Source: Proteiniborus sp. DW1
GTDB lineage: Bacteria; Bacillota; Clostridia; Tissierellales; Proteiniboraceae
NCBI RefSeq assembly: GCF_900095305.1
Contig: NZ_FMDO01000044.1
Coordinates: 1 to 64,000 of the forward strand
DNA length: 64,000 nt
Direction of reading: 5' to 3'
Below the pieces are notes generated by a model, which was not told the origin of the DNA, searched no databases, and worked only from the letters and a program-made list of their open reading frames with translations. How positions within the stretch are numbered: the stretch's first letter is position 1; every line of letters starts with the position of its first letter. Both the position numbers and the translations under genes were made by a program. Below, one piece after another: positions 6,207 through 62,753 of the stretch.

Positions 6207-8075
6207 TTACTGCTCCTTTTTGACCCATTTTTCATTAATGTAATTTAGCTTTTTCTTTAACAAATTATCTACATAGTCATCGGAATATGTTTCAACTTTA
6301 AGCATTTCCTCCTCGTTGTCAATATGTTCTACAATATATGCCATAAGCACGCAGACAAGCTTGGAGAATATTTTTTGATACAGCTCAGTGGTAGAATACC
6401 TTTTGCGTTTCTTATATAGCTGTTCAATCTGCATATCAATATTTTTCTCAATTACCTGCTGCAACGTATACCCATTAAGAACTGAAATTGCAGGGTTCTT
6501 TCCTTTAACAAACGAATATATGAAATCACCATGGATATTTCCTGCGTATCTTAAATGCGCAGTATTTTTATAAGATTTAATAAAATCTTGGAAGATTACT
6601 CCATCATCCGGAAGATAAAAGCCAGCCCTTGCAACAGCCTTCATCATTGCAATCCAAACCTTAATATTCTTATTGTTGAATGTAAAGACCATATAACCGC
6701 CGTCTTTCAAAACTCTATTACACTCTGCGTAGATTTTATATAGTAACTCCTCATAATCCGTTTCAGTCTTGGCCCCTGATACTTTTACCTTTCTATTGAC
6801 AACTGCTTCTTCATCCTTAAAAATATAAGCATTTAATCCACTAAAGGATTCGTACCATGCATTCCAAACAGCTGATAATTCAGCATATTGTACGTTACTC
6901 CCATAAGGCGGGTCTGTTATTACTACATCGATAGATTTATCGGGTATTGGAAGATCACTTGAACTTCTGTTTAATACTAGATAGCCACCTTTTTTTCGTA
7001 ATTCATCGAAAGAATGCGCCTCTTTACACCCTTCAGGTAAATTCTGCTTTGAATATTTAACTCCAGCAAGTATACTTTTTGCTCTTTTGAAAATGATATC
7101 TACAACGTTGGTTTCTACATATTGATTCGGAAGCCAATATGCGTGTTTGTCCATTGAAGTAGGGTTACCGTTTTCCCAATTATCTGTAACCCTTGTCATA
7201 TTATTTGTATACCTCAATGCTGAGCTAAATAGAAAATATAGCATCTCAAATATATCCTTTGGTAATTCTGATTTTTTAGAAATAATATCGTTAAAAATAG
7301 AACAGTTTATAGCATAGTTTCTATCTGTAAAAAGATCCTTATATTCAGTAACACCTCGTTCTTTTAGCTTATCTTCATGTTGTCTATCCCAATCCATGGG
7401 TATCTCAAAATTAGGACTATATTTTAGCTTATTTACTGTATCTAATAACTCGTTATAATTGCAAATTTGCGTTTTTGAATCTATTGCCCTTGTTTTGATT
7501 TCATTGGTTGCATTCGATCTATAGCGCACACGTATCGGAAGACTACCATTTGGTATACCTTCAATCCTTCTAACTCCACTGTGACCCTCGCAAGATTTAT
7601 TCGAACACTGATAAATGCCATTCTTTATTTTATTATCTTCTGTTAGAACTATTTCTTGACCACAATGAGGGCAAAGAACAATATACACCCATTCAGTCCA
7701 TTCACAAATGCCACTATCATCACCAAAGTCAACAAAATACCATCTTTCATATTTCTCCCGAATCTGGCTACAGAAGTCTTCGTAAACTTTCTTTAATAGA
7801 TCAATATCCCCATTGAACATCTGCATCCTTGTGATAAAAGTTGCTAATGGATTTATATCTACACCTATTACTTTTCTCTCTAAAGACGCCCCTTCAAAAA
7901 CTGTTACTCCACCACCACAAAAGCAATCCAATATAATATCATTCTTATTTGAATAATGTCTAATTAAATTATTAAAAACATTATAAGGTCTTCTGGCAAA
8001 GTATTTATGCATTCTATATTGAGGAGTATGTCCTTTAGCTTCAATTGATTTCTTTATTGGTTTTACCTTTTTCAT
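6207..8075 (-). CDS. DNA methyltransferase with Zn ribbon, DPPY type
   Basis: 622 residues. The N-terminus has the MHKYFARRPYN motif and motif I DCFCGGGVTVFEG, and motif IV is TDPPYGSNVQYAEL. A zinc ribbon (CPHC ... CSNKSC) lies at about residues 135-165, between the N-terminal SAM motifs and the catalytic domain. This resembles COG1743/DUF1156-like adenine-specific methylases with Zn ribbons. The gene overlaps the upstream XRE gene by 35 nt and precedes the SPPY methylase by 4 nt. Two methylases with different active-site motifs suggest one enzyme per strand of an asymmetric site, or modification of two sites. That is inference from architecture. Confidence 0.85.
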   Translation of the reverse strand: MKKVKPIKKSIEAKGHTPQYRMHKYFARRPYNVFNNLIRHYSNKNDIILDCFCGGGVTVFEGASLERKVIGVDINPLATFITRMQMFNGDIDLLKKVYEDFCSQIREKYERWYFVDFGDDSGICEWTEWVYIVLCPHCGQEIVLTEDNKIKNGIYQCSNKSCEGHSGVRRIEGIPNGSLPIRVRYRSNATNEIKTRAIDSKTQICNYNELLDTVNKLKYSPNFEIPMDWDRQHEDKLKERGVTEYKDLFTDRNYAINCSIFNDIISKKSELPKDIFEMLYFLFSSALRYTNNMTRVTDNWENGNPTSMDKHAYWLPNQYVETNVVDIIFKRAKSILAGVKYSKQNLPEGCKEAHSFDELRKKGGYLVLNRSSSDLPIPDKSIDVVITDPPYGSNVQYAELSAVWNAWYESFSGLNAYIFKDEEAVVNRKVKVSGAKTETDYEELLYKIYAECNRVLKDGGYMVFTFNNKNIKVWIAMMKAVARAGFYLPDDGVIFQDFIKSYKNTAHLRYAGNIHGDFIYSFVKGKNPAISVLNGYTLQQVIEKNIDMQIEQLYKKRKRYSTTELYQKIFSKLVCVLMAYIVEHIDNEEEMLKVETYSDDYVDNLLKKKLNYINEKWVKKEQ

Positions 8076-44465: not shown

Positions 44466-44656
44466 TGCAAGCACAGGCACAAGCACAGGGGCACAAGCAC
44501 AGGACAAGCACAGGGACGGGACAAGCACAGGGACGGAGTTATTGCTTGGGAAAGCAAAGGGACGGGGTTGTTGCTTCGGGAAAGCAAAGGGACGGGGTTG
44601 TTGCTTCAAGGAAAAAGCAAAGAGATGAGGTTGTTGTTTAAAGATAGAAGCAAGGA
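44466..44656 (+). repeat. Tandem array of GGGACGG REP-like repeats
   Basis: Degenerate head-to-tail copies of about 25-30 nt with the core AGGGACGGGGTTGTTGCTT, each preceded by AAGCA(C/A)AGG; six to seven units are seen, decaying leftwards into AAGCACAGG only and rightwards into AAGCAAAGAGATGAGG. The ends AAGCAA/TTGCTT can pair. The same core flanks the RAYT transposase copies. The rest of 44047-44465 has no supported gene. Confidence 0.75.
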
Positions 44657-53414: not shown

Positions 53415-53498
53415 GGATAAGCAAAAGCTATTTCACTATATTCTATTATAAGTATAATGCAATAGCCTTTGCTATGCATTAATAACATATCTTCTCAT
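53415..53498 (-). promoter_or_regulatory. Leader dyad of the DUF1062 gene (copy 1)
   Basis: Arms GATAAGCAAAAGCTATT (53416-53432) and AATAGCCTTTGCTATGC (53461-53477) with a conserved outer block ending TATCTTCTCATA. A second copy lies ahead of the CD3324-type gene. Conserved dyad plus flank suggests a regulator operator or RNA hairpin rather than a terminator. Confidence 0.5.
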
Positions 53499-53588
53499 AT
53501 ACACATAACCCTCCTATCTTTTTGTATTCATATATATTTTATACGTTTTAATACATATTAAGTACCTTAAACTCATTTCAGAAACAAA

Positions 53589-53936: not shown

Positions 53937-54012
53937 AGGATTAGCAAAGGCTATTTTTTTACTTATTTTTTGCAATAGCCTTTGCTATGCAAAAATAACG
54001 TATCTTCTCATA
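53937..54012 (-). promoter_or_regulatory. Leader dyad of the CD3324-type gene (copy 2)
   Basis: Arms TTAGCAAAGGCTATT (53941-53955) and AATAGCCTTTGCTATGC (53974-53990), followed by AAAATAACGTATCTTCTCATA. Copy 1 has the same right arm and flank with three substitutions. Located 36 bp upstream of the CD3324-type start. Confidence 0.5.
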
Positions 54013-54205
54013 AACTGCCCTCCTTAATATATATAAATAGTAACTTCTTACAGTCATAACATAATCTCTTATAATAATTTTTATATTTCTCTTCTCTATA
54101 GATGCTACTTGGAAAGACTTCTAAACTTACTATATTTTATCACGTTCCTCATGGCGATTCAATAACCCTCCTTACATTCTATACATATCTTTAGAACTAC
54201 ATGCT

Positions 54206-54533
54206 CAAGCACAGGCAAGCAGCAAGCACAGGCAGCAGCAAGCACAGGGACGGAGTTATTGCTTCAAGCACAGGGACGGAGTTATTGCTTCACAGTCTCT
54301 ATTTTCACTTTTTGCTCTTGCTTTTCTTGGCGCAAACACCACCCTTTTCTGGTATAACATGGGGTTGTTGTAAATCTATCCTACACCCTCTTGCCCCTAC
54401 TTGTTTATATATTGGTTTAAAATAAAAAAGGGTATGACTTTCCGGTTAATAATAATTTATGAAATCACTTACAATGAAAAGTTAAAAATGAAGCAATAAC
54501 CCCGTCCCCTTGTTTCCACGTCCCCTTGTTTCC
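54206..54533. mobile_element. Internally deleted RAYT element (MITE-like) with REP ends
   Basis: The left end (54206-54292) is a GGGACGGAGTTATTGCTTC tandem; the right end (54489-54533) is the inverted form AAGCAATAACCCCGTCCCCT. The middle (54303-54488) matches the sequence around the start of the RAYT gene (GCTCTTGCTTTTCTTGGC, ACACCACCCTTTTCT) and its upstream leader, with the start GTG mutated to GCG and about 240 codons missing. It is therefore a non-autonomous derivative of the element at 56016-57033. No other gene is visible between 54013 and 54780. Confidence 0.75.
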
Positions 54534-54780
54534 GCCAAAAAAACTCAAATATTATTATGGGACAAGTATACTTTTTTGTGCAGTCTGCCCTTCCCTTGCT
54601 TTATACACAGTAATTAATAGTCATAAGTCCTAACTTTGTTCCTTCTGTGTCTAATTCCACCAATTATAGTTCTAATAATAATTTACTTTCTAACGCTTTT
54701 GTAATCTTTCATTTAAATCACATACTTATATTGTGAATTTATAAATCGGCTGTAAATATTAACATTAGATTTTATCAACA

Positions 54781-55908
54781 TTATGAATTCAAATCTATTT
54801 TCATAATTTCACCATTAATCAAATTTATCCTATATAGAGATTTTTCAAGAATATTATTGGGATTATCTGAAACTAAAAAAAACAGCCAATCACCTTGGAT
54901 ACCAAATTGATCAACCCAATACTCATCATACACCACTTCATAGCCTTTTTTAGTAATCTTCAATAACTCTCTTGTTGTCGAAAACTGGTCTCTTTTATTT
55001 CCTATAGCATATATTGCATCGTTATAATATTTTATTGTATCAATAACATATTCATCTAAATCAATCTTAATCAAATCCTCAGAACTACCTGTTTCCAAAT
55101 TAAATATTTTAAAATCTAATCCATTAAAAGTTAAAATAGCCTCATCAGTAATAGAATAAAGGTTACCTGAATCTTTTAATACGAGTTCTATATCGTCATT
55201 TTCAACGGACATCTTATAAACTGAATTATCATTTTCATATAAATTAAAAAATATATACCCGTCCTTATAGATTAGATTGGAACAACCCCCATGGGGTTTT
55301 GTAATAGGTATCAAAACAGTATAGTCTGTACCATCAAGTCGCATTTTGCTCATTTGGGAAACATATTCTTTCTCTGAGGCTTCGGTAAAATATATCCATC
55401 CATCAACTATAATATACTCCCATATTCCTTTATTGGGACTTACTAAAGTAGTTGAAAAATCAATTAACGAAAGTGCATACAATCGTTGCTCATCATTTAG
55501 GTACCACACATTATCTCCATTGGCTTCTTCCAAAACTTTCCTAACATCCATCTCATTATGTTCTATTAAATACCTAAAGTCATCTAAATAGTACAAATAG
55601 TCTTTATCTATTACTAAGCCCGAAATACTCACATCTTCTAAAACTTTTTCTATTTTAGTTCCATCACTTTTCATCCTATATAAGGTACCAAAGTTATCGT
55701 GTTTATTTGTAGAATTTTTCTGTGAAAAATATATCCATTCTGAATTTTCAGTTGTTACAAAGTTATAACTTTGCTTAATCATTGATATGATCTTGTAATC
55801 CAGCCACGAATCAGTAGATTTTTCATAAATCCTGAAAAGTACAAAAAAAATAAATAATGCGGAAAGAAATACAATAGATAATAATATTTTCCTATTATTT
55901 GTTTTCAA
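54781..55908 (-). CDS. Membrane-anchored DUF5050-type beta-propeller protein
   Basis: 375 residues from TTG 55908, 8 nt after GGGGG. A signal anchor (ILLSIVFLSALFIFFVLFRI) is followed by repeated propeller blades with the YYLD, WIYFTE and LYRINL patterns (YRMKSDGTKIEKV, MRLDGTDYTVLIP). DUF5050 proteins are extracellular propellers of unknown role, common in clostridia. A second, larger DUF5050 lipoprotein lies at 60837-62720; the two are not tandem copies. Confidence 0.75.
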   Translation of the reverse strand: MKTNNRKILLSIVFLSALFIFFVLFRIYEKSTDSWLDYKIISMIKQSYNFVTTENSEWIYFSQKNSTNKHDNFGTLYRMKSDGTKIEKVLEDVSISGLVIDKDYLYYLDDFRYLIEHNEMDVRKVLEEANGDNVWYLNDEQRLYALSLIDFSTTLVSPNKGIWEYIIVDGWIYFTEASEKEYVSQMSKMRLDGTDYTVLIPITKPHGGCSNLIYKDGYIFFNLYENDNSVYKMSVENDDIELVLKDSGNLYSITDEAILTFNGLDFKIFNLETGSSEDLIKIDLDEYVIDTIKYYNDAIYAIGNKRDQFSTTRELLKITKKGYEVVYDEYWVDQFGIQGDWLFFLVSDNPNNILEKSLYRINLINGEIMKIDLNS

Positions 55909-56015
55909 AGACTATACCCCCTTGCACAAATATATTTGGTGCATAATATGTACATATGGTATTTTTAGTTAATATCATTAGTATATGTCGGCAATGAAAC
56001 ATAAGTATTTAATTA

Positions 56016-57033
56016 GAGCACAGGCGTAAAGCACAGGGACGGGTAAAGCACAGGGACGGAGTTATTGCTTCATAATCTCCATATTACATTAGGTGATACC
56101 CCTGTCACTCTAGCAAGCTGTCTTGTTGATATCCCCTTGATTTTCAATAGTTCTCTTAGAATTCTTTCCTTTTCTTCTTTAGGTTTATTTTGTATCATAA
56201 TTGACTTCACTTTAAACTTTTGTTCAATTATTTTCATAAGCTCTTCATCAGATAATCTTATTGCTTTTTCTTCAATTTCTAGACACTCATCATCATTATT
56301 CTCTTCAGTATATTTAACAAACTCTTTTATAGCTTTGCTTTTGTCCTCGCTAAACATTTTTAAGACAAATTCCCTATCTGTCAAGCCCTTATCCTCTATA
56401 TATTCTATATAACTACTCCATTTATAATTTTTTATATCTTTTGCTATACCTGCTTTTATCGGATTTTGATGTATGTATCTTAATACAGTGATGAAGTACT
56501 TATCATCTTCTACGGGCTCACTTTTAAAACGATCTTGAAAAAGATTACCTATTCGATGATATTTCCTATTGTACCAATATACATAGCTTCCACAAATACG
56601 TCTCATAATCTGTTCAAGTGGATCTGTTCCTACTTTAAGCAATAGATGAAAATGATTATTCATAAGACAAAAAGCGTATAACTGATATTCACATATTTCT
56701 TTATAATGTGCAAGTGTTTCAATTAATTTATGTCTATCTTCATCATCTAGGAATATAACCTGATGATTTATCCCTCGTAATATTATATGATATATACCAC
56801 TTTCACTTTTTACTCTTGCTTTTCTTGGCACAAACACCACCCTTTTCTAGTATAACATGGGAATTGTTGTAAATCAATCCCACACCCTCTTGCCTCTACT
56901 TGTTTATATATTGGTTTAAAATAAAAAAAGGTTATAATTTTCCAGTTAATAATAACTTATGAAGTTACTAACAATAAAAAATTAAAAATAAAAATGAAGC
57001 AGTAACCCCGTCCCCTTGCTTCACCCTTGCTTC
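56016..57033 (-). mobile_element. REP-flanked RAYT element, intact copy
   Basis: The transposase gene is bounded by REP-like repeats: GAGCACAGG and AGGGACGGAGTTATTGCTTCA at 56016-56073 on its 3' side, and GAAGCAGTAACCCCGTCCCC plus TTGCTTC at 56996-57033 on its 5' side, in inverted orientation. The stop codon of the transposase is inside the 3' repeat. The whole makes a REPtron-like unit. Confidence 0.75.
56070..56831 (-). CDS. REP-associated tyrosine transposase (RAYT, Y1_Tnp family)
   Basis: 253 residues from GTG 56831 (AAGGGTGG upstream); the typical start MPRKARVKSESGIYHIILRG is kept. HUH motif NNHFHLLLKVG and the catalytic tyrosine in YVYWYNRKYHRIGNLFQDRF are intact, with a C-terminal HTH (GISTRQLARVTGVSPNVIWR). 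RAYTs are single-strand tyrosine transposases related to IS200/IS605 TnpA and act on REP sequences. Its stop TGA is the first bases of the REP. It lies between DUF5050 and a lipoprotein gene. Likely active; mobility not shown here. Confidence 0.88.
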   Translation of the reverse strand: MPRKARVKSESGIYHIILRGINHQVIFLDDEDRHKLIETLAHYKEICEYQLYAFCLMNNHFHLLLKVGTDPLEQIMRRICGSYVYWYNRKYHRIGNLFQDRFKSEPVEDDKYFITVLRYIHQNPIKAGIAKDIKNYKWSSYIEYIEDKGLTDREFVLKMFSEDKSKAIKEFVKYTEENNDDECLEIEEKAIRLSDEELMKIIEQKFKVKSIMIQNKPKEEKERILRELLKIKGISTRQLARVTGVSPNVIWRL

Positions 57034-57041
57034 TTACCGTG

Positions 57042-58169
57042 TTATCTTGATTTGAATAAATAAAACCTGTTTTTACTATCCTTAGTATTGATTAATACTC
57101 CTAAATCATCTGAAAAACAAAAATTATTTATTCCACTAGAAACATCACTGAACAATACTAATTGTTCTTTTTCAGTGTCATAAATATATGGTTTTTCATC
57201 ATAATAATTTACCCATGCAACAAATCTATTATTTGACCTAAGATTCGCAATAGATGAATATGTCGATAAAACTGGTTTGTTTTTAATCATATCTGTAATT
57301 TGAAAAAGTGTTGTTTTTGTTGTATGATTTGTTTCTTTGTTTTCAATACAATAAAATCCGTTTTCATTTGCTACAATGTCCTTAAGATCTCTAGTATTGA
57401 TCAGTACTATATTATCATTAGAAACAATATCTTTGAACTTACCCTCGCTGTTTTTTCTGAAAGATGCAACATTTCCATTATAAAGCATGGGGTTTTGAGC
57501 ATCTTCGAACAAAGTTATTAATTTCTGTTCTTCTATTGTATATTCATATAGATTTACTCTTATCTTCCCGTTTGTATCCATGTAAAAGTCATCAAAATAA
57601 ACTTTATCATCAATTAACAAAATGTTGTTTTCGCTTTGAAAATATAAAGCATTTGTATTTGTATCTACAGTATATGAAAAGAACTTTACTAAATCCATCT
57701 TTGTAAAGTTGTAGTAATATAATTGGCAAGTTCTCCAATCATCTTCTGAAAGTTTAACAATCATATAATTATCATTAGAAGTGCAAATCTCAAAATCCAT
57801 ATTTTTATCAATATTAATTAATTTCTTATATCTATCAGTTTCAAAGTTATACATTCCTATTTCATGTATTACAATATTTGGACTTTCTGTATATAAAACG
57901 ACTATTACATTAGATTCGTTATATATTTTACTACAAGACATATTCATACCATTCAATTTTTCAGGTAACATAACTTCTTCAATTTTTAGCACTTCGTTCG
58001 CATCACATATAGGAACATAAATTTCATAAATGCTTTCCACATTTTCATATGAATTAACATTTTGTGAAGTAATATTTTTTACCTCAGAAATATTTTGGTT
58101 ACACGCAATGAGAGAAAAACAAGCTATTAAAGCGAATAAAAATTTTATTAATTTATTTGCTATAGACAT
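57042..58169 (-). CDS. Putative beta-propeller lipoprotein
   Basis: 375 residues, ATG 58169 after AAGGAGG. Signal peptide and lipobox ALIACFSLIACNQNI. The mature protein has repeated short blades of the TolB/DUF5050 type (MYNFETDRYKKLINID, LYEYTIEEQKLITLF, YIYDTEKEQLVLFS). Function unknown; membrane-bound extracellular propeller. It lies 66 bp after a C39-like peptidase gene, with a strong hairpin in between, and may be its cofactor or substrate receptor. Confidence 0.75.
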   Translation of the reverse strand: MSIANKLIKFLFALIACFSLIACNQNISEVKNITSQNVNSYENVESIYEIYVPICDANEVLKIEEVMLPEKLNGMNMSCSKIYNESNVIVVLYTESPNIVIHEIGMYNFETDRYKKLINIDKNMDFEICTSNDNYMIVKLSEDDWRTCQLYYYNFTKMDLVKFFSYTVDTNTNALYFQSENNILLIDDKVYFDDFYMDTNGKIRVNLYEYTIEEQKLITLFEDAQNPMLYNGNVASFRKNSEGKFKDIVSNDNIVLINTRDLKDIVANENGFYCIENKETNHTTKTTLFQITDMIKNKPVLSTYSSIANLRSNNRFVAWVNYYDEKPYIYDTEKEQLVLFSDVSSGINNFCFSDDLGVLINTKDSKNRFYLFKSR

Positions 58170-58195
58170 GTATAAGAACCTCCTTCCATATGAAA

Positions 58196-58226
58196 CCTGA
58201 ACACAGTGAAATACACTGTGTTCAGG
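58196..58226 (-). terminator. Hairpin between C39-like peptidase and lipoprotein genes
   Basis: 13-bp perfect stem (CCTGAACACAGTG 58196-58208 with CACTGTGTTCAGG 58214-58226), 5-nt loop, no T-run. It may reduce read-through or stabilise the upstream message. Confidence 0.5.
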
Positions 58227-58235
58227 TAAGTTACA

Positions 58236-59120
58236 TTACCAAACAATACCTTTTGATTTTGCATAGGCTGCCAACTTAGTAGATGTAATAGAATAATAAG
58301 CAGATATATTATCAGAAAAGCTAACTTCATCTGATTTAGCTGGATCAACAATCCAAATTTCATCACCATCTAACTTATATCCATCAATTGCTAACCAATG
58401 TCCAATTTTTCTTGCAGGATATCCTGGCAGTATACTTTCGTGACCCTTAATGTTCCCATATGATATTCCACATACTACAAGCCCATGATCAGAATCAATT
58501 GTCGAAACAATTCTCCAATCAATATCAGATGCTTCAATATTTGTAGTTCCAGCTTCACCATAAGGATATGGAACATAATAAAATCCTATTTCATCAGTTA
58601 AATAGTTTGGTACAGGAAACTGGTCTCGAGAGTTACCATTAGAAATATACCAAGGACATGAAGAATATCTGTCATATACTTCTTCTGCAATAACTGATTG
58701 GGACTTATTTATATTTTCATAGTCAAGAAGGCTTTTTATTGCAGCATAGCCACACCAATAATCTTTCTCTTGAGGTACTTGATAAATAGCTAACCTTTTC
58801 CCTGAATAAAGTGGAACTAAACTATATTCTGGTTCATTAGCTACTTCATCATAAGTTGCTTTAATTTCACTCAGTATGCTACTTGCAAGTATAGAATTTC
58901 CAGACATTTTTGCTCTGTAATATTCTTTAGCTTTTTGCTCTTTTCTGGCTATCTTAGCAGCATACTCACTATCATACTGAAAATCCCCTATAACTGGAGC
59001 ATAGTCTTCAATTTCATAATTGTCATTTCTTCTATACTCAGTGTTCGCAAACACAACTGGGATTCCAGATGTACTTATTATCATTATCATTAGCAGTATC
59101 GCAATATATCTTTTTATCAC
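58236..59120 (-). CDS. Exported C39-like cysteine peptidase (papain-like fold)
   Basis: 294 residues from GTG 59120, 8 nt after AGGAG; longer frame to 59177 lacks a ribosome site. Signal peptide IAILLMIMIISTSGIPVVFA is followed by a helical propeptide-like region and a C39_2-like domain: catalytic Cys in KDYWCGYAAIKSLLD, His in RKIGHWLAIDGY and Asp in IWIVDPAKSD. It would be active outside the cell. No ABC transporter is fused, unlike bacteriocin-processing C39 proteins. Followed by the propeller lipoprotein. Confidence 0.82.
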   Translation of the reverse strand: MIKRYIAILLMIMIISTSGIPVVFANTEYRRNDNYEIEDYAPVIGDFQYDSEYAAKIARKEQKAKEYYRAKMSGNSILASSILSEIKATYDEVANEPEYSLVPLYSGKRLAIYQVPQEKDYWCGYAAIKSLLDYENINKSQSVIAEEVYDRYSSCPWYISNGNSRDQFPVPNYLTDEIGFYYVPYPYGEAGTTNIEASDIDWRIVSTIDSDHGLVVCGISYGNIKGHESILPGYPARKIGHWLAIDGYKLDGDEIWIVDPAKSDEVSFSDNISAYYSITSTKLAAYAKSKGIVW

Positions 59121-59239
59121 CTTAAACACTCCTCGTATAATATGTTTAAACCCAATTATTTTATGATGTTTAAGCATATTTATTTTTAATACAATTTTTA
59201 ATTGGTATATCCTAATACTACAATAGTATTAAGAATAGT

Positions 59240-59477
59240 TAGCAAAGGATAATTCTTTCACTCCTAGCAAAACCATTTGGTTATTGCTTAAAAAAGCATG
59301 CTTCCTGACTTAGCTGTCACATTCTGCTTACTTCAGTTGCTGCATCTCTTTGATTAGCTCATCAGCAAGATAGTTTTCAAAGATGAATGCTAATAATGCG
59401 AGGTTTCAGTCAGCAGCTAAGATTAGGATATCTCTTTTACTATTTGTTCCCCATTTCATAAGAAAGGTGGTGATTTT
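59240..59477 (+). other. IS110 left-end noncoding region (possible bridge-RNA remnant)
   Basis: About 240 bp ahead of the IS110 ORF without a reading frame. In IS110-group elements such as IS621 this left-end region encodes the bridge RNA that guides the recombinase. Short dyads are visible (GCTTAAAAAAGC, GTCAGCAGC). Ascribing a bridge RNA here is inference. The rest of the gap 59121-59239 shows no gene. Confidence 0.4.
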
Positions 59478-59900
59478 ATGAAGAACAATATTCTTTCAAC
59501 TTTATTCGTAGGTATTGATGTAAGCTCAAAGACTAATGTCTTATGTGCTCTTGATTTTGAAGGCAATAAACTTCTTAACCTAAAGGCTTTAAATAATCAA
59601 CCTGGTACTGAGTCTATCTTAGTTAACATTATTGGTTATTTAGTTTCTAATAACCTAAAATATGTTGTTATTGCCTTGGAATCTACTTCTTTTTACAGTA
59701 CTCACATTGCAAACTTTCTAGCTTCAAATGAAATACTATTAGCATACAAGCCTCTTGTATACTGTCTTAATCCTACAACCATTGCTAATTACAGAAAGTC
59801 ATTTGTTGATATGGATAAGACTGATCCTTTAGGTGCCTATGTTATTGCTGATTTTGCTAGATGTGGAAGAATCACATCTAAACCTTATTACATTAGGTGA
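59478..59900 (+). pseudogene. IS110-family transposase, 3'-truncated
   Basis: 140 codons; ATG 59478 after AAAGGTGG. The DEDD (RuvC-like) N-terminal domain is present: FVGIDVSSKTNVLCALD, VVIALESTSFYS and DMDKTDPLGAYVIADFARCG. After residue 136 the frame runs into RAYT element sequence (YYIR then stop). The serine-containing C-terminal domain is absent, so the protein cannot recombine DNA. Confidence 0.88.
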
Positions 59901-60634
59901 TACCCTGTCACTCTAGCAAGCTGTCTTGTTGATGTCTCCTTGATTTTCAATAGTTCTCTTAGAATTCTTTCCTTTTCTTCTTTAGATTTGTTTTGTATCA
60001 TAATTGGCTTCATTTTATACTTCTGTTCAATTATTTTCATAAGCTATTCATCAGATAATCTTATTGCTTTTTCTTCAATTTCTAGACACTCATCATCATT
60101 ATTCTCTTCAGTATATTTAACAAACTCTATTATAGCTTTGCTTTTGTCCTCGCTAAACATTTTTAAGACAAATTCCCTATCTGTCAAACCCTTATCCTCT
60201 ATATATTCTATATAACTACTCCATTTATAATTTTTTATATCTTTTGCTATACCTGCTTTTATCGGATTTTGATGTATGTATCTTAATACAGTGATGAAGT
60301 ACTTATCATCTTCTACGGGCTCACTTTTAAAACGATCTTGAAAAAGATTACCTATACGCTGATATTTCCTATTGTACCAATAAACATAACTTCCACAAAT
60401 GCGTCTCATAATCTGCTCAAGTGGATCTGTTCCTACTTTAAGCAATAGATGAAAATGATTACTCATGAGACAAAAGGCATATAATTGATATCCACATATT
60501 TCTTTATAATGTGCTAGTGTTTCAATTAATTTATGTCTGTCTTCATTATCTATAAATATATCCTGATGATTTATCCCTCGTAATATTATATGATATATAC
60601 CACTTTCACTTTTTGTTCTTGCTTTTCTTGGGAC
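59886..60634 (-). pseudogene. RAYT transposase copy, broken and fused to IS110
   Basis: Near-identical to the gene at 56070-56831 (roughly 8 differences in the first 196 residues; HUH and tyrosine kept). A GAG-to-TAG nonsense change truncates it at residue 196, and further down one C is lost in a C4 run (ATACCCTGTC against ATACCCCTGTC), so the C-terminal HTH is not made. Its left REP has been lost at the junction with IS110 (59886), while the right REP at 60783-60835 survives. Confidence 0.85.
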
Positions 60635-60782
60635 AAACACCACCCTTTTCTAGTATAACATGGGAATTGTTGTAAATCAATCCCACGCTCTCTTACTTTT
60701 ATATATATTGGGTTAAGATGAAAAAGGTATAATTTTTCGATTAATAATAGTTTGTAAAATTACTAACAACAAAAAATAAAAA

Positions 60783-60835
60783 TGAAGCAGTAACCCCGTC
60801 CCCCTGCTTCAGCAGTAACCCCGTCCCCCTGCTTC
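60783..60835 (-). repeat. REP pair upstream of the broken RAYT copy
   Basis: Two tandem copies of AGCAGTAACCCCGTCCCCCT + GCTTC. Same motif as at 56996-57033. It lies between the RAYT pseudogene and the DUF5050 lipoprotein gene, two bases from the latter's stop. Confidence 0.75.
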
Positions 60836-60836
60836 C

Positions 60837-62720
60837 CTAACCAACATGCTTTTCTATTACATCTTTTATAAAATCGAGATTGGATTTAATCTTCAGCAAA
60901 TCTTCCATTCTGATACCTAAATCTATTATACCTTTAGGAGTAAGTCCTAATAAGTACTCTAAATCATAATACTCTCCATCTTTATTTAGTACTATAAAAT
61001 CTTTCAATGATATTTTATTAGGTATATCTTTGCGCATCAACCACTTAAAAGATGTCGTTTCAATATCCTCGAACAATATATCTTCATCTATCATTGTCAG
61101 GTCAATGAATTTACTTTCATTATCTATGCTCTGGATATAATTATTGGCTTGTAGGTAATCTAAAAAATCCCTAAAATAATCAATTATCTCGATTGCATCA
61201 CTTATTTCCTCTTCATCTATTGTAATAAATTCTTCTTTATTCTCAACTAGAGTTTTATAATACTCTAATCTAAACTTAAGTATATCTAGTTCCTCCATTA
61301 TAATATTTGCATTTGATATTTCATCTGGAGTCATTTTAAATAAATCATCTAAACTATAAAAAAAATTGTCCTCACTTACCACCCCAAAATTACTAAACGG
61401 ATATTTATTTTCTAAAGCTTTTATTGTTAGAAAGTTTAAGTATTCTCCATTATAGTGACCTTTTTGTGAGAAATACTCTATAATTTCTTTGATTTCATCT
61501 ATCTTATTCTTGGCTTCATATTTCTCTTCATCACCAATCGCAGAATATGGTTCAACTAATACTTTAGTTTCTTTTCCATCTAAACTCAATGCATATTGAG
61601 TTCCATATGCAGTATATAAAATCCAATCACCTACAATACTAAATCTGGTGTTGCTATTATCCCTAAACTCAGCGAGAATTTCTCTATTGTTTTTATCTAG
61701 CCTAAAAATTTGCATATCTAAATCATTATTCTTTTCATTAGAAAAATAGATGTTACCATAAAGCCATCCATTTTTTATATTAAAGGTATATAACTCGATA
61801 TCTATAAGCTCTTTTTTCGTAGAATCTTCAATACTTTTTTCTACAATACATGTTTTATCATTTCCTATGTCGTAATATACAATCCTATTATCTAAAGTTG
61901 TTAGGTGTGTTCCTGATATAGGATTCTCTAATACTATTTCATAATTGATTTTATTTTTTTCTAGTTTTTCATTCCTTAAATCATCTCTTTTTATTCGTAT
62001 TATACCACCCTGTGCATATTCTGCTTCGTAACTCACATCTCTTCCATATATATACTTATCATCATAACTAAAGTCCGATATTTCTATATCTAATATTCTT
62101 TGATAATCACTACCGTCTATCCTCATCCTAGAAAATGCTGTAGCTAGATAAGAGCCTGGTGAACCATGATATCCAATTCCTTGACCTTTCTTATTCAAAT
62201 ATTCATTGAAATATACCCACCCATCTATATAAATAAAATTAAACATTCTATGTTCATCATTTATTTTTCTTCTATCTGTTCCATCTGTTCTTATTTTATA
62301 AAAAGTCCTAAAATCTGAGTTATTAATATAATATATCCAATCATCTTTAACAAAAATATTAGATGCAGAATCATTTGACAGCTTTGTCACCCCAGTAGCA
62401 TCTTCTTTCATTTTATATAATTCACCTATTTCTAAAGTATCCCCATAGTTCATTTTTTTTCTACGGCTAAAATAAATCCATCCATTATCATAATATGCAA
62501 CACCCCCACCATTGCTTAGAAAACTATTAACCTGACTTGTAATTACTTTTTCTTCTTCAACATCCTTTATCTCTATAATAGGATCAACTTCATATGTCTT
62601 TAAAGTCTCATTTACAGATTTTGAGCTGTTGCAACTAACAATGCTAAAACTTGGCAAAAATATTAAAATTATCAAAACAAATAATTTATGACCTCTATTT
62701 TTAGGATTATTAAAATACAT
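60837..62720 (-). CDS. DUF5050-type propeller lipoprotein with repeated C-terminal domain
   Basis: 627 residues from ATG 62720 (AGGAAGG 6-9 nt upstream). Signal peptide and lipobox IFLPSFSIVSCNSSK. Residues about 50-390 form propeller blades (GWIYFSRRKKMNY, KIRTDGTDRRKINDE, WVYFNEYL, SRMRIDGSDYQRILD). The last 240 residues are helical with two copies of a short motif, NFFYSLDDLFKMTPDEI and EYYDLEYLLGLTPKGIIDLG, which also occurs once in the M23 peptidase just upstream. The function of the propeller and of this tail is unknown; location is the cell surface. Confidence 0.75.
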   Translation of the reverse strand: MYFNNPKNRGHKLFVLIILIFLPSFSIVSCNSSKSVNETLKTYEVDPIIEIKDVEEEKVITSQVNSFLSNGGGVAYYDNGWIYFSRRKKMNYGDTLEIGELYKMKEDATGVTKLSNDSASNIFVKDDWIYYINNSDFRTFYKIRTDGTDRRKINDEHRMFNFIYIDGWVYFNEYLNKKGQGIGYHGSPGSYLATAFSRMRIDGSDYQRILDIEISDFSYDDKYIYGRDVSYEAEYAQGGIIRIKRDDLRNEKLEKNKINYEIVLENPISGTHLTTLDNRIVYYDIGNDKTCIVEKSIEDSTKKELIDIELYTFNIKNGWLYGNIYFSNEKNNDLDMQIFRLDKNNREILAEFRDNSNTRFSIVGDWILYTAYGTQYALSLDGKETKVLVEPYSAIGDEEKYEAKNKIDEIKEIIEYFSQKGHYNGEYLNFLTIKALENKYPFSNFGVVSEDNFFYSLDDLFKMTPDEISNANIIMEELDILKFRLEYYKTLVENKEEFITIDEEEISDAIEIIDYFRDFLDYLQANNYIQSIDNESKFIDLTMIDEDILFEDIETTSFKWLMRKDIPNKISLKDFIVLNKDGEYYDLEYLLGLTPKGIIDLGIRMEDLLKIKSNLDFIKDVIEKHVG

Positions 62721-62753
62721 GTCCATCCTTCCTTCTGATTTCATTTTTTACAG

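What the first reader, a model, noticed from the sequence alone, without database searches (positions are those of the whole stretch)
54206..60835. RAYT family in three states: intact, chimeric and internally deleted
One intact copy with REPs on both sides, one copy with nonsense and frameshift changes fused to IS110, and one derivative that keeps only the ends and about ten start codons. This shows a Gram-positive REPtron generating MITE-like elements, and the REP includes the transposase stop codon.
Basis: seen in the sequence. Interest (0 to 1): 0.65.

Follow-up and report, generated by a model that had tools for sequence, protein, structure and literature searches.

The report
Clostridial transposase with hairpin-bounded ends
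A bacterium related to clostridia carries a small family of jumping-gene relics bounded by short DNA hairpins, and the same kind of hairpin, with a fixed loop and a changing stem, is found beside related transposase genes in many Gram-positive bacteria.

Summary
The window has one intact 256-aa REP-type tyrosine transposase gene (56070-56840, -). A second copy has a stop codon, a 1-nt frameshift and a lost 3' end at an IS110 remnant. A 277-nt derivative keeps both ends and 13 N-terminal codons. A fourth, broken copy lies just outside (C44:64030-64784). Copies are 85-99% alike in their first 200 nt and share nothing detectable outside their repeat ends.

The reading is partly right. The ends are REP-like hairpins, but not canonical GTAG REPs. 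The protein has signatures of TnpA_REP subclass 2.1 / TIRYT, for which a 2018 survey found no REPs. In 104 related loci a GGGWC core lies within 230 nt downstream in 89 and upstream in 83 (control 4 of 208). Loop type follows the transposase tree (6 changes, shuffled 37.9), while stems differ between element families. Chosen relatives hold REPIN-like inverted pairs and two miniature derivatives.

A further regularity: truncated end copies pile up on the loop's 5' side (49 versus 8 mirror units).

Mobility is not shown. The host has one MITE-like copy; presence/absence at two solo sites suggests past gain.

The parts
44468..44607 (+). Array of truncated and fuller repeat units of the same family, not beside any transposase copy
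54201..54239 (+). Outward ladder of truncated repeat units (outer arm kept, loop cut short)
54240..54516 (-). MITE-like derivative: both end repeats, upstream region and 13 N-terminal transposase codons; most of the gene missing
54240..54291 (+). Two tandem 26-nt downstream end repeats of the derivative
54490..54516 (-). Upstream end repeat of the derivative; a truncated unit follows at 54517-54532; this repeat folds poorly (-0.4 kcal/mol)
56017..56045 (+). Outward ladder of truncated units outside the downstream repeat of the intact copy
56046..56072 (+). Downstream end repeat (hairpin) of the intact copy; contains the TGA stop at 56070-56072
56070..56840 (-). Intact transposase gene, 256 aa, HUH (NHFH) and YIHQNP motifs, C-terminal HTH-like segment under the curated cut-off
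56995..57022 (-). Upstream end repeat (hairpin) of the intact copy; a truncated unit follows at 57023-57033
59128..59882 (+). IS110 remnant: 5' region and first ~135 codons of its transposase; homology to another remnant ends at 59871
59883..60643 (-). Transposase pseudogene: one nonsense codon, one 1-nt frameshift, 3' end and downstream repeat lost at the IS110 junction
60786..60835 (-). Two identical tandem 25-nt upstream end repeats of the broken copy, abutting the stop codon of the gene at 60837-62744

Best explanation
This is a family of REPtron/TIRtron-type elements. A single-strand HUH tyrosine transposase of the TnpA_REP class (subclass 2.1 / TIRYT-like) is bounded by two inverted REP-like hairpins, each with an element-specific stem (here GAAGCA/TGCTTC) and a loop shared by the transposase clade (GGGGACGG...). 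Inferred mechanism: the transposase recognises the loop in single-stranded DNA, cuts near the hairpin and moves or copies the stretch between two inverted hairpins. Internal deletion then leaves 277-nt MITE-like forms, closer pairs (REPIN-like) and solo hairpins. Repeated joining of a 3' end in the loop to a site just outside the 5' arm would build the polar ladders of truncated ends. Shown: the anatomy, copies bounded by the repeats with unrelated flanks, loop-clade association, REPIN-like pairs in relatives, presence/absence at two sites. Inferred: recognition, cutting, strand transfer and mobilisation in trans.
For: Four copies 85-99% identical in the first 200 nt and unrelated 60-260 nt outside. 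Core within 230 nt: downstream 89 of 104, upstream 83, both 71, neither 3; control 4 of 208. Own stems longer than swapped ones in 101 loci (mean 5.23 v 3.67; 6 or more in 40% v 11%). Loop type on the transposase tree: 6 changes, shuffled mean 37.9, 0 of 200 as low; 85 of 101 rows labelled. AGGGGACGGTTCT in 15 of 16 chosen genomes, 58 hits in one, many as inverted pairs 32-44 nt apart; the backward control has 1 hit in the 16 genomes together. In that genome 5 of 7 transposase homologues have a hairpin of this kind, with different stems that recur at solo sites. Ladder polarity 49 v 8; 73 outward v 12 inward copies at 137 ends. Solo repeats at C7:83303 and C14:25498 are missing at the orthologous places of two same-genus genomes.
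Against: One MITE-like copy in the host. No precise empty site with both flanks intact was found. Host copies differ by 1-15%, so no recent burst except copies 3 and 4 (99% alike at the 5' end). Single hairpins fold weakly (-2.1 to -3.8 kcal/mol) and one end of the derivative barely folds. Perfect stems of 5 or more: 51 downstream and 36 upstream ends of 104, both ends in 18. 28 of the 64 carrier genomes have a single match. In G125 two of seven homologues have no such hairpin. 7 of the 11 repeat sites that I count in the host lie on one 195-kb contig, so local duplication could play a part. The tree is a quick one with 46 of 98 inner branches under 80 support.
Confidence: 0.7

Rival explanations
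1. The hairpins and ladders arise from replication slippage and recombination at palindromes; the transposase is a domesticated enzyme and moves nothing.
For: Ladder units often carry a few nt of host flank, as slippage would. 28 of 64 carrier genomes have a single match. No movement was observed.
Against: Slippage at a palindrome should act on both sides, but truncated units favour the loop's 5' side (49 v 8 mirror units; 73 v 12). Slippage does not place the same hairpin at dozens of sites as inverted pairs, nor tie the loop to the transposase clade.
Confidence: 0.2
2. The four copies in this contig spread by ordinary segmental duplication, and the repeats are only their shared edges.
For: All four lie within about 11 kb, in one orientation; 7 of 11 repeat sites are on this contig.
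Against: Flanks 60-260 nt outside show no similarity (local scores 16-24 against a shuffled mean of 20.3 and maximum of 29).
Confidence: 0.05
3. The solo hairpins are kept as gene-end signals (terminators or stop suppliers) and spread by selection.
For: One hairpin supplies the stop of rimI (named by NCBIfam), another that of the gene before C14:25498; one abuts the stop at 60837.
Against: Few sites were examined and no genome-wide test was run; the single hairpins fold weakly; at C14:25498 both relatives, and at rimI G001, show terminator-like hairpins with T-runs by eye instead.
Confidence: 0.05

Closest known systems
TIRtron / TIRYT (Di Nocera 2013, PMC3733652; section 16 and passages seen)
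   Same: Tyrosine transposase gene between inverted repeats sharing a GGGG-rich motif (GGGGWSAS); in some genomes the repeats also occur singly, in dimers and in groups; some overlap the gene ends.
   Different: The window's motif GGGGACGG misses the consensus at one position (GGGGACAG types in relatives fit). Here the motif sits in the loop of a hairpin whose stem varies. Text searches of that paper gave no hits for Firmicutes, Clostridium or Desulfotomaculum or for words beginning Clostr or Desulf; its figures, which list species, were not seen.
TnpA_REP subclass 2.1 (Quentin 2018, PMC6006769; passages and sections 13 and 20 seen)
   Same: NH[YF]H, FQ, Y[IV]H-NP and SS motifs, length near 240 aa, C-terminal HTH-like tail.
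   Different: That paper found no REP-like sequences near these genes; here REP-like hairpins stand at both ends.
REPtron / RAYT / REPIN (Nunvar 2010 PMC2817692, passages; 2011 REPIN paper PMC3116915, listing and abstract start; PMC8266576, passages)
   Same: Inverted hairpins at both ends of the gene, solo copies, inverted pairs, different hairpin families beside different transposase genes.
   Different: No GT[AG]G foot; the shared part is the loop.
IS200/IS605 elements
   Same: Y1 HUH core.
   Different: No Y---Q motif, longer protein, inverted hairpins at the two ends.

Membership tests
TnpA_REP (class 2 Y1 / RAYT) | HUH motif and Y---NP motif | tested here: met
   NHFH and YIHQNP; N62, H63, H65, Y122, N126, P127 invariant in 13 sequences; Pfam Y1_Tnp; profile match to 4er8, TnpA_REP, E 7e-7. 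NCBIfam REP_Tyr_transpos 79.7 v cut-off 80.
TnpA_REP subclass 2.1 | NH[YF]H, FQ, Y[IV]HLNP, SS motifs | tested here: met
   NHFH, FQ and WSSY present; YIHQNP has Q where the paper's table gives L. Compared by eye; no profile or tree with that paper's classes was run.
TnpA_REP subclass 2.1 | C-terminal HTH domain | tested here: inconclusive
   HTH_24 19.9 bits (cut-off 21.9) in the window protein; 2 of 13 members match HTH_24 at E 0.01.
TIRtron / TIRYT | Gene bounded by inverted repeats | tested here: met
   core on both sides in 71 of 104 loci.
TIRtron / TIRYT | GGGGWSAS motif in the repeat | tested here: inconclusive
   Window GGGGACGG misses position 7; 30 of 85 labelled loci have the GGGACAGG type, which fits if a G precedes it.
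Canonical REPtron | GT[AG]G tetranucleotide at the hairpin foot | tested here: not met
   Read by eye from the repeats of the host and of the fetched sites; no formal scan.
REPIN | Two REPs in inverted orientation a short distance apart, in many copies | tested here: inconclusive
   Found in relatives, above all G125 and G016, and in G001; in the window only the 277-nt derivative.
MITE | Several non-coding copies with the parent's ends, target duplication | tested here: not met
   One such copy in the host; no target duplication seen by eye. Two similar derivatives in G125.
IS200/IS605 | Y---Q motif, about 150 aa | tested here: not met
   YIHQNP, 256 aa; definition from PMC6006769.
REPtron/TIRtron | Transposase cuts and joins its own hairpins as single strand | not testable with these tools
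   Needs biochemistry.

The most novel reading that the evidence does not exclude
The elements use an inverted REP code: a clade-specific loop read by the transposase and an element-specific stem that gives each lineage its identity. The enzyme also performs one-ended strand joining that adds truncated ends mainly on the loop's 5' side, so the ladders are a fossil record of its cutting polarity. Bacillota would then carry REPIN populations driven by a transposase subclass reported to have no REPs.
Probability: 0.4. Interest if true: 0.7.

Novelty: new variant of a known kind. Interest (0 to 1): 0.5.

Why it matters
Subclass 2.1 is reported as the second largest subclass of this transposase superfamily and as lacking REPs, so what it acts on was open. 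A loop tied to the transposase clade with a variable stem gives a specific substrate to test in vitro, and the polar ladders predict where the enzyme cuts. It also extends REPIN-like populations to Gram-positive bacteria, where their spread could be studied in cultured species such as Geosporobacter ferrireducens or Desulforamulus putei.

Tried and rejected
Canonical REP: rejected for lack of a GT[AG]G foot, read by eye. CGTC-tagged REPs (Di Nocera 2013): the reverse strand reads CCGTCCCC, but those repeats are reported to have no transposase association and a CGTC at the end, not in the loop; not pursued. Segmental duplication: rejected by flank comparison. Working IS110-transposase fusion: rejected, opposite strands. 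Synteny search of the cluster in G001 and G002 gave no clean empty site. At C14:28034 the downstream flank could not be aligned, so the site was not used as presence/absence evidence. Of the five genomes with a single pattern hit, looked at, G015, G029 and G079 (no homologue at E 1e-20) and G028 show no clear family hairpin; G039 does, and it has one broken and one more distant intact homologue. Motif-word search of the paper library (40 of 465 listed) showed only titles on unrelated subjects. Searches for RAYT/REPIN with Firmicutes, Clostridi, Gram-positive or Bacillus and for TIRYT/TIRtron listed no paper that, by title and abstract start, describes these Bacillota hairpins; that library lacks most subscription journals. 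Bertels 2017 was not held. No structure prediction was run.

Rows dropped; loci with an up/down alignment score of 28 or more and a readable core, leaving 137 ends. Searches left out L063, L081, L082 and L085 of the 30 loci; one search repeats the counts with all 109 loci given, less 3 near-duplicates (L080, L128, L151) and 2 without an intact ORF (L063, L180), so 104. One search left 16 of 101 rows unlabelled (no loop type or more than one). One search did not list all places. may count one truncated unit for two neighbouring hairpins; 2 of the 8 mirror units (L331) are not in a repeat of this kind; its off-pattern counts are 7 (5'-arm units on the 3' side) and 2 (3'-arm units on the 5' side).
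Full report
What is there. The window is G000:C44:1-64000 of a 3.12-Mb genome in 62 contigs. Its 'same order' set includes the genome of Thermohalobacter berrensis (locus L062 of G038 lies in L128), so the host belongs to the Bacillota, by inference Tissierellales. At 56070-56840 on the minus strand lies an intact 256-aa Y1 transposase gene. It is bounded by inverted repeats: downstream TGAAGCAATAACTCCGTCCCTGTGCTT, upstream GAAGCAAGGGGACGGGGTTACTGCTTCA. The TGA stop is the first three bases of the downstream repeat. Each repeat can form a hairpin with a GAAGCA/TGCTTC-type stem (-2.1 and -3.7 kcal/mol as DNA, z -2.1 and -2.6).

Copies. DNA searches of the own genome find copies at 54240-54516, 56040-57030, 59883-60811 and 64030-64784. 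Copy 3 is 93% identical to copy 2 and carries a TAG, a 1-nt deletion and a lost 3' end at an IS110 remnant; the own-genome search found only partial matches to this IS110 elsewhere. Copy 4, beyond the window edge, has an internal deletion and stops. The 277-nt derivative 54240-54516 keeps both ends and 13 codons. Within the first 200 nt the copies are 85-99% identical; 60-260 nt outside they are no more alike than shuffled sequence. The derivative is 91%, 85% and 86% identical to copies 2, 3 and 4, so it is its own lineage. The repeats therefore behave as element boundaries.

Repeats elsewhere in the genome. The repeat pattern has 18 hits in the host and 0 for the pattern read backwards; 7 of 120 genomes have a hit, five of them a single one, and the backward control has one hit in the 120. 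I count 11 separate host sites, 7 of them on C44, which is 6% of the assembly. A second repeat type (GAGACAAGGGGAC...) occurs on C49, C5 and C58.

Orthologous sites. At C7:83303 the repeat replaces the last codon and stop of rimI (TIGR01575, 157.5 bits, cut-off 86.4): the protein ends MWRIGEARGRS where same-genus G002 and G001 end MWRVK and MWRIK. The gene after it looks the same in G001 (by eye). At C14:25498 a repeat sits at a gene end and supplies the stop; G001 and G002 have none there. At C44:144.4k and G001:C30:28.6k repeats occupy the same intergenic place: blastn matches of 74% and 78% flank both. G001 has only a broken transposase relic at E 1e-20. So repeats are gained or replaced within the genus and can outlive their transposase. 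No precise empty site with both flanks intact was found.

Protein class. The motifs NHFH, FQ, YIHQNP and SS match the published subclass 2.1 signature with one letter different in the Y motif. A C-terminal HTH is suggested but under the curated cut-off. The only solved relative by sequence at E 0.01 is 4er8, TnpA_REP. The 2018 survey states that neither automatic nor manual searches found REP-like sequences near subclass 2.1 genes, and says that the subclass probably corresponds to the TIRYTs. The 2013 paper gives the motif GGGGWSAS for some TIRYT repeats.

Generality. 64 of 120 genomes searched, the host included, hold a homologue at E 1e-20; 28 of the 64 have one match. The named loci are nearly all Bacillota by record title; L133 (Desulfovibrio MAG) and L173 (Atribacteria MAG) are not. 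In 104 transposase loci a GGGWC core lies within 230 nt downstream in 89, upstream in 83, on both sides in 71 and on neither in 3, against 4 of 208 control stretches inside the genes, none with a stem. A perfect stem of 5 or more was found at 51 downstream and 36 upstream ends, at both in 18. In 101 of these loci own stems are longer than stems made by swapping 3' halves between loci, and the inner hairpin end is within 6 nt of the stop in 28 of 51. Three loop types (GGTTC 37 loci, AGG 30, GGGGTT 18) need 6 changes on the transposase tree; shuffled labels need 37.9 on average and never as few in 200 (quick tree, 46 of 98 inner branches under 80 support). Sister rows can share flanking DNA by descent, but the median end branch is 0.29 changes per site.

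REPIN-like pairs. AGGGGACGGTTCT occurs in 15 of 16 chosen carrier genomes, with 1 hit of the backward control in the 16 together: 58 hits in G125, 23 in G016, 18 in G123, 17 in G121. Many are inverted hairpin pairs a few tens of nt apart, such as L279 and L287, which fold at -36 to -37 kcal/mol. G125 has seven homologues. Five have hairpins of this kind nearby, with stems of the types AGACAA, GTGACA, GCGACA-like, (AG/A)AACA and, at a relic, GAGTCA; two (C7, C57) have none. The same stems recur at solo and paired sites. Two G125 sites, L271 and L295, share both ends with that GAGTCA relic and look like internally deleted derivatives, L295 on short matches; L274 shares only the repeats.

Ladders. 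Outside many repeats stand truncated tandem units that keep the outer arm and lose part of the loop, for example GAAGCAAGGGTA GAAGCAAGGGTA GAAGCAAGGGGACGGGG at C14:28011. At 137 transposase-gene ends there are 73 outward direct copies (43 ends) against 12 inward (9 ends), 6 outward and 14 inward inverted, and 2.0 expected outward from shuffles. Over 186 hairpins, including solo and paired sites, truncated 5'-arm units on the loop's 5' side number 49 and mirror units 8; off-pattern units number 7 and 2. The three sets other than the transposase loci alone give few: 7 such units at 42 hairpins. Units often include a few nt of host flank, about 12 in L083. Slippage alone predicts no side; a cut in the loop joined to a site just outside the arm does. 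This is inference from static sequence.

Verdict. It is a REPtron-like TIRtron of a transposase subclass not previously credited with REPs, in a phylum for which I found no description in the searched library. Transposition, recognition of the loop and the making of miniature forms in trans remain untested.

Noticed in passing
G000:C49:1-15, 6287-6362, 7000-7088; C5:43760; C58:22604: A second repeat family (GAGACAAGGGGACG..., stem GAGACA) in the same genome, also in tandem; a different transposase gene lies at C58:23592-24332, about 1 kb from one copy.
   Followed up: partly
window 59128-59900; G000:C39:52823-53145: IS110 remnants; the C39 copy matches two separate parts of the query, so it too seems internally deleted. 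Several G001 matches to the 5' region lie at contig ends.
   Followed up: partly
G000:C7:82862-83323: rimI whose C-terminus and stop codon are supplied by a repeat, giving a predicted tail GEARGRS instead of K.
   Followed up: yes
L164 (Oscillospiraceae MAG): A ladder of GCCATTT units with a hairpin of another stem family (ACACAAGGGGACGGTTCTATTGTGT) inside it, suggesting repeats land in repeats.
   Followed up: no
window 53439-53502 and 53952-54015: A 64-nt imperfect direct repeat (80%) containing GCAATAGCCTTTGCTATGCA palindromes, unrelated to the GGGACGG repeats.
   Followed up: no
L083 downstream end: A tandem unit made of about 12 nt of host flank plus part of the repeat, showing that ladder units can copy flank.
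   Followed up: partly
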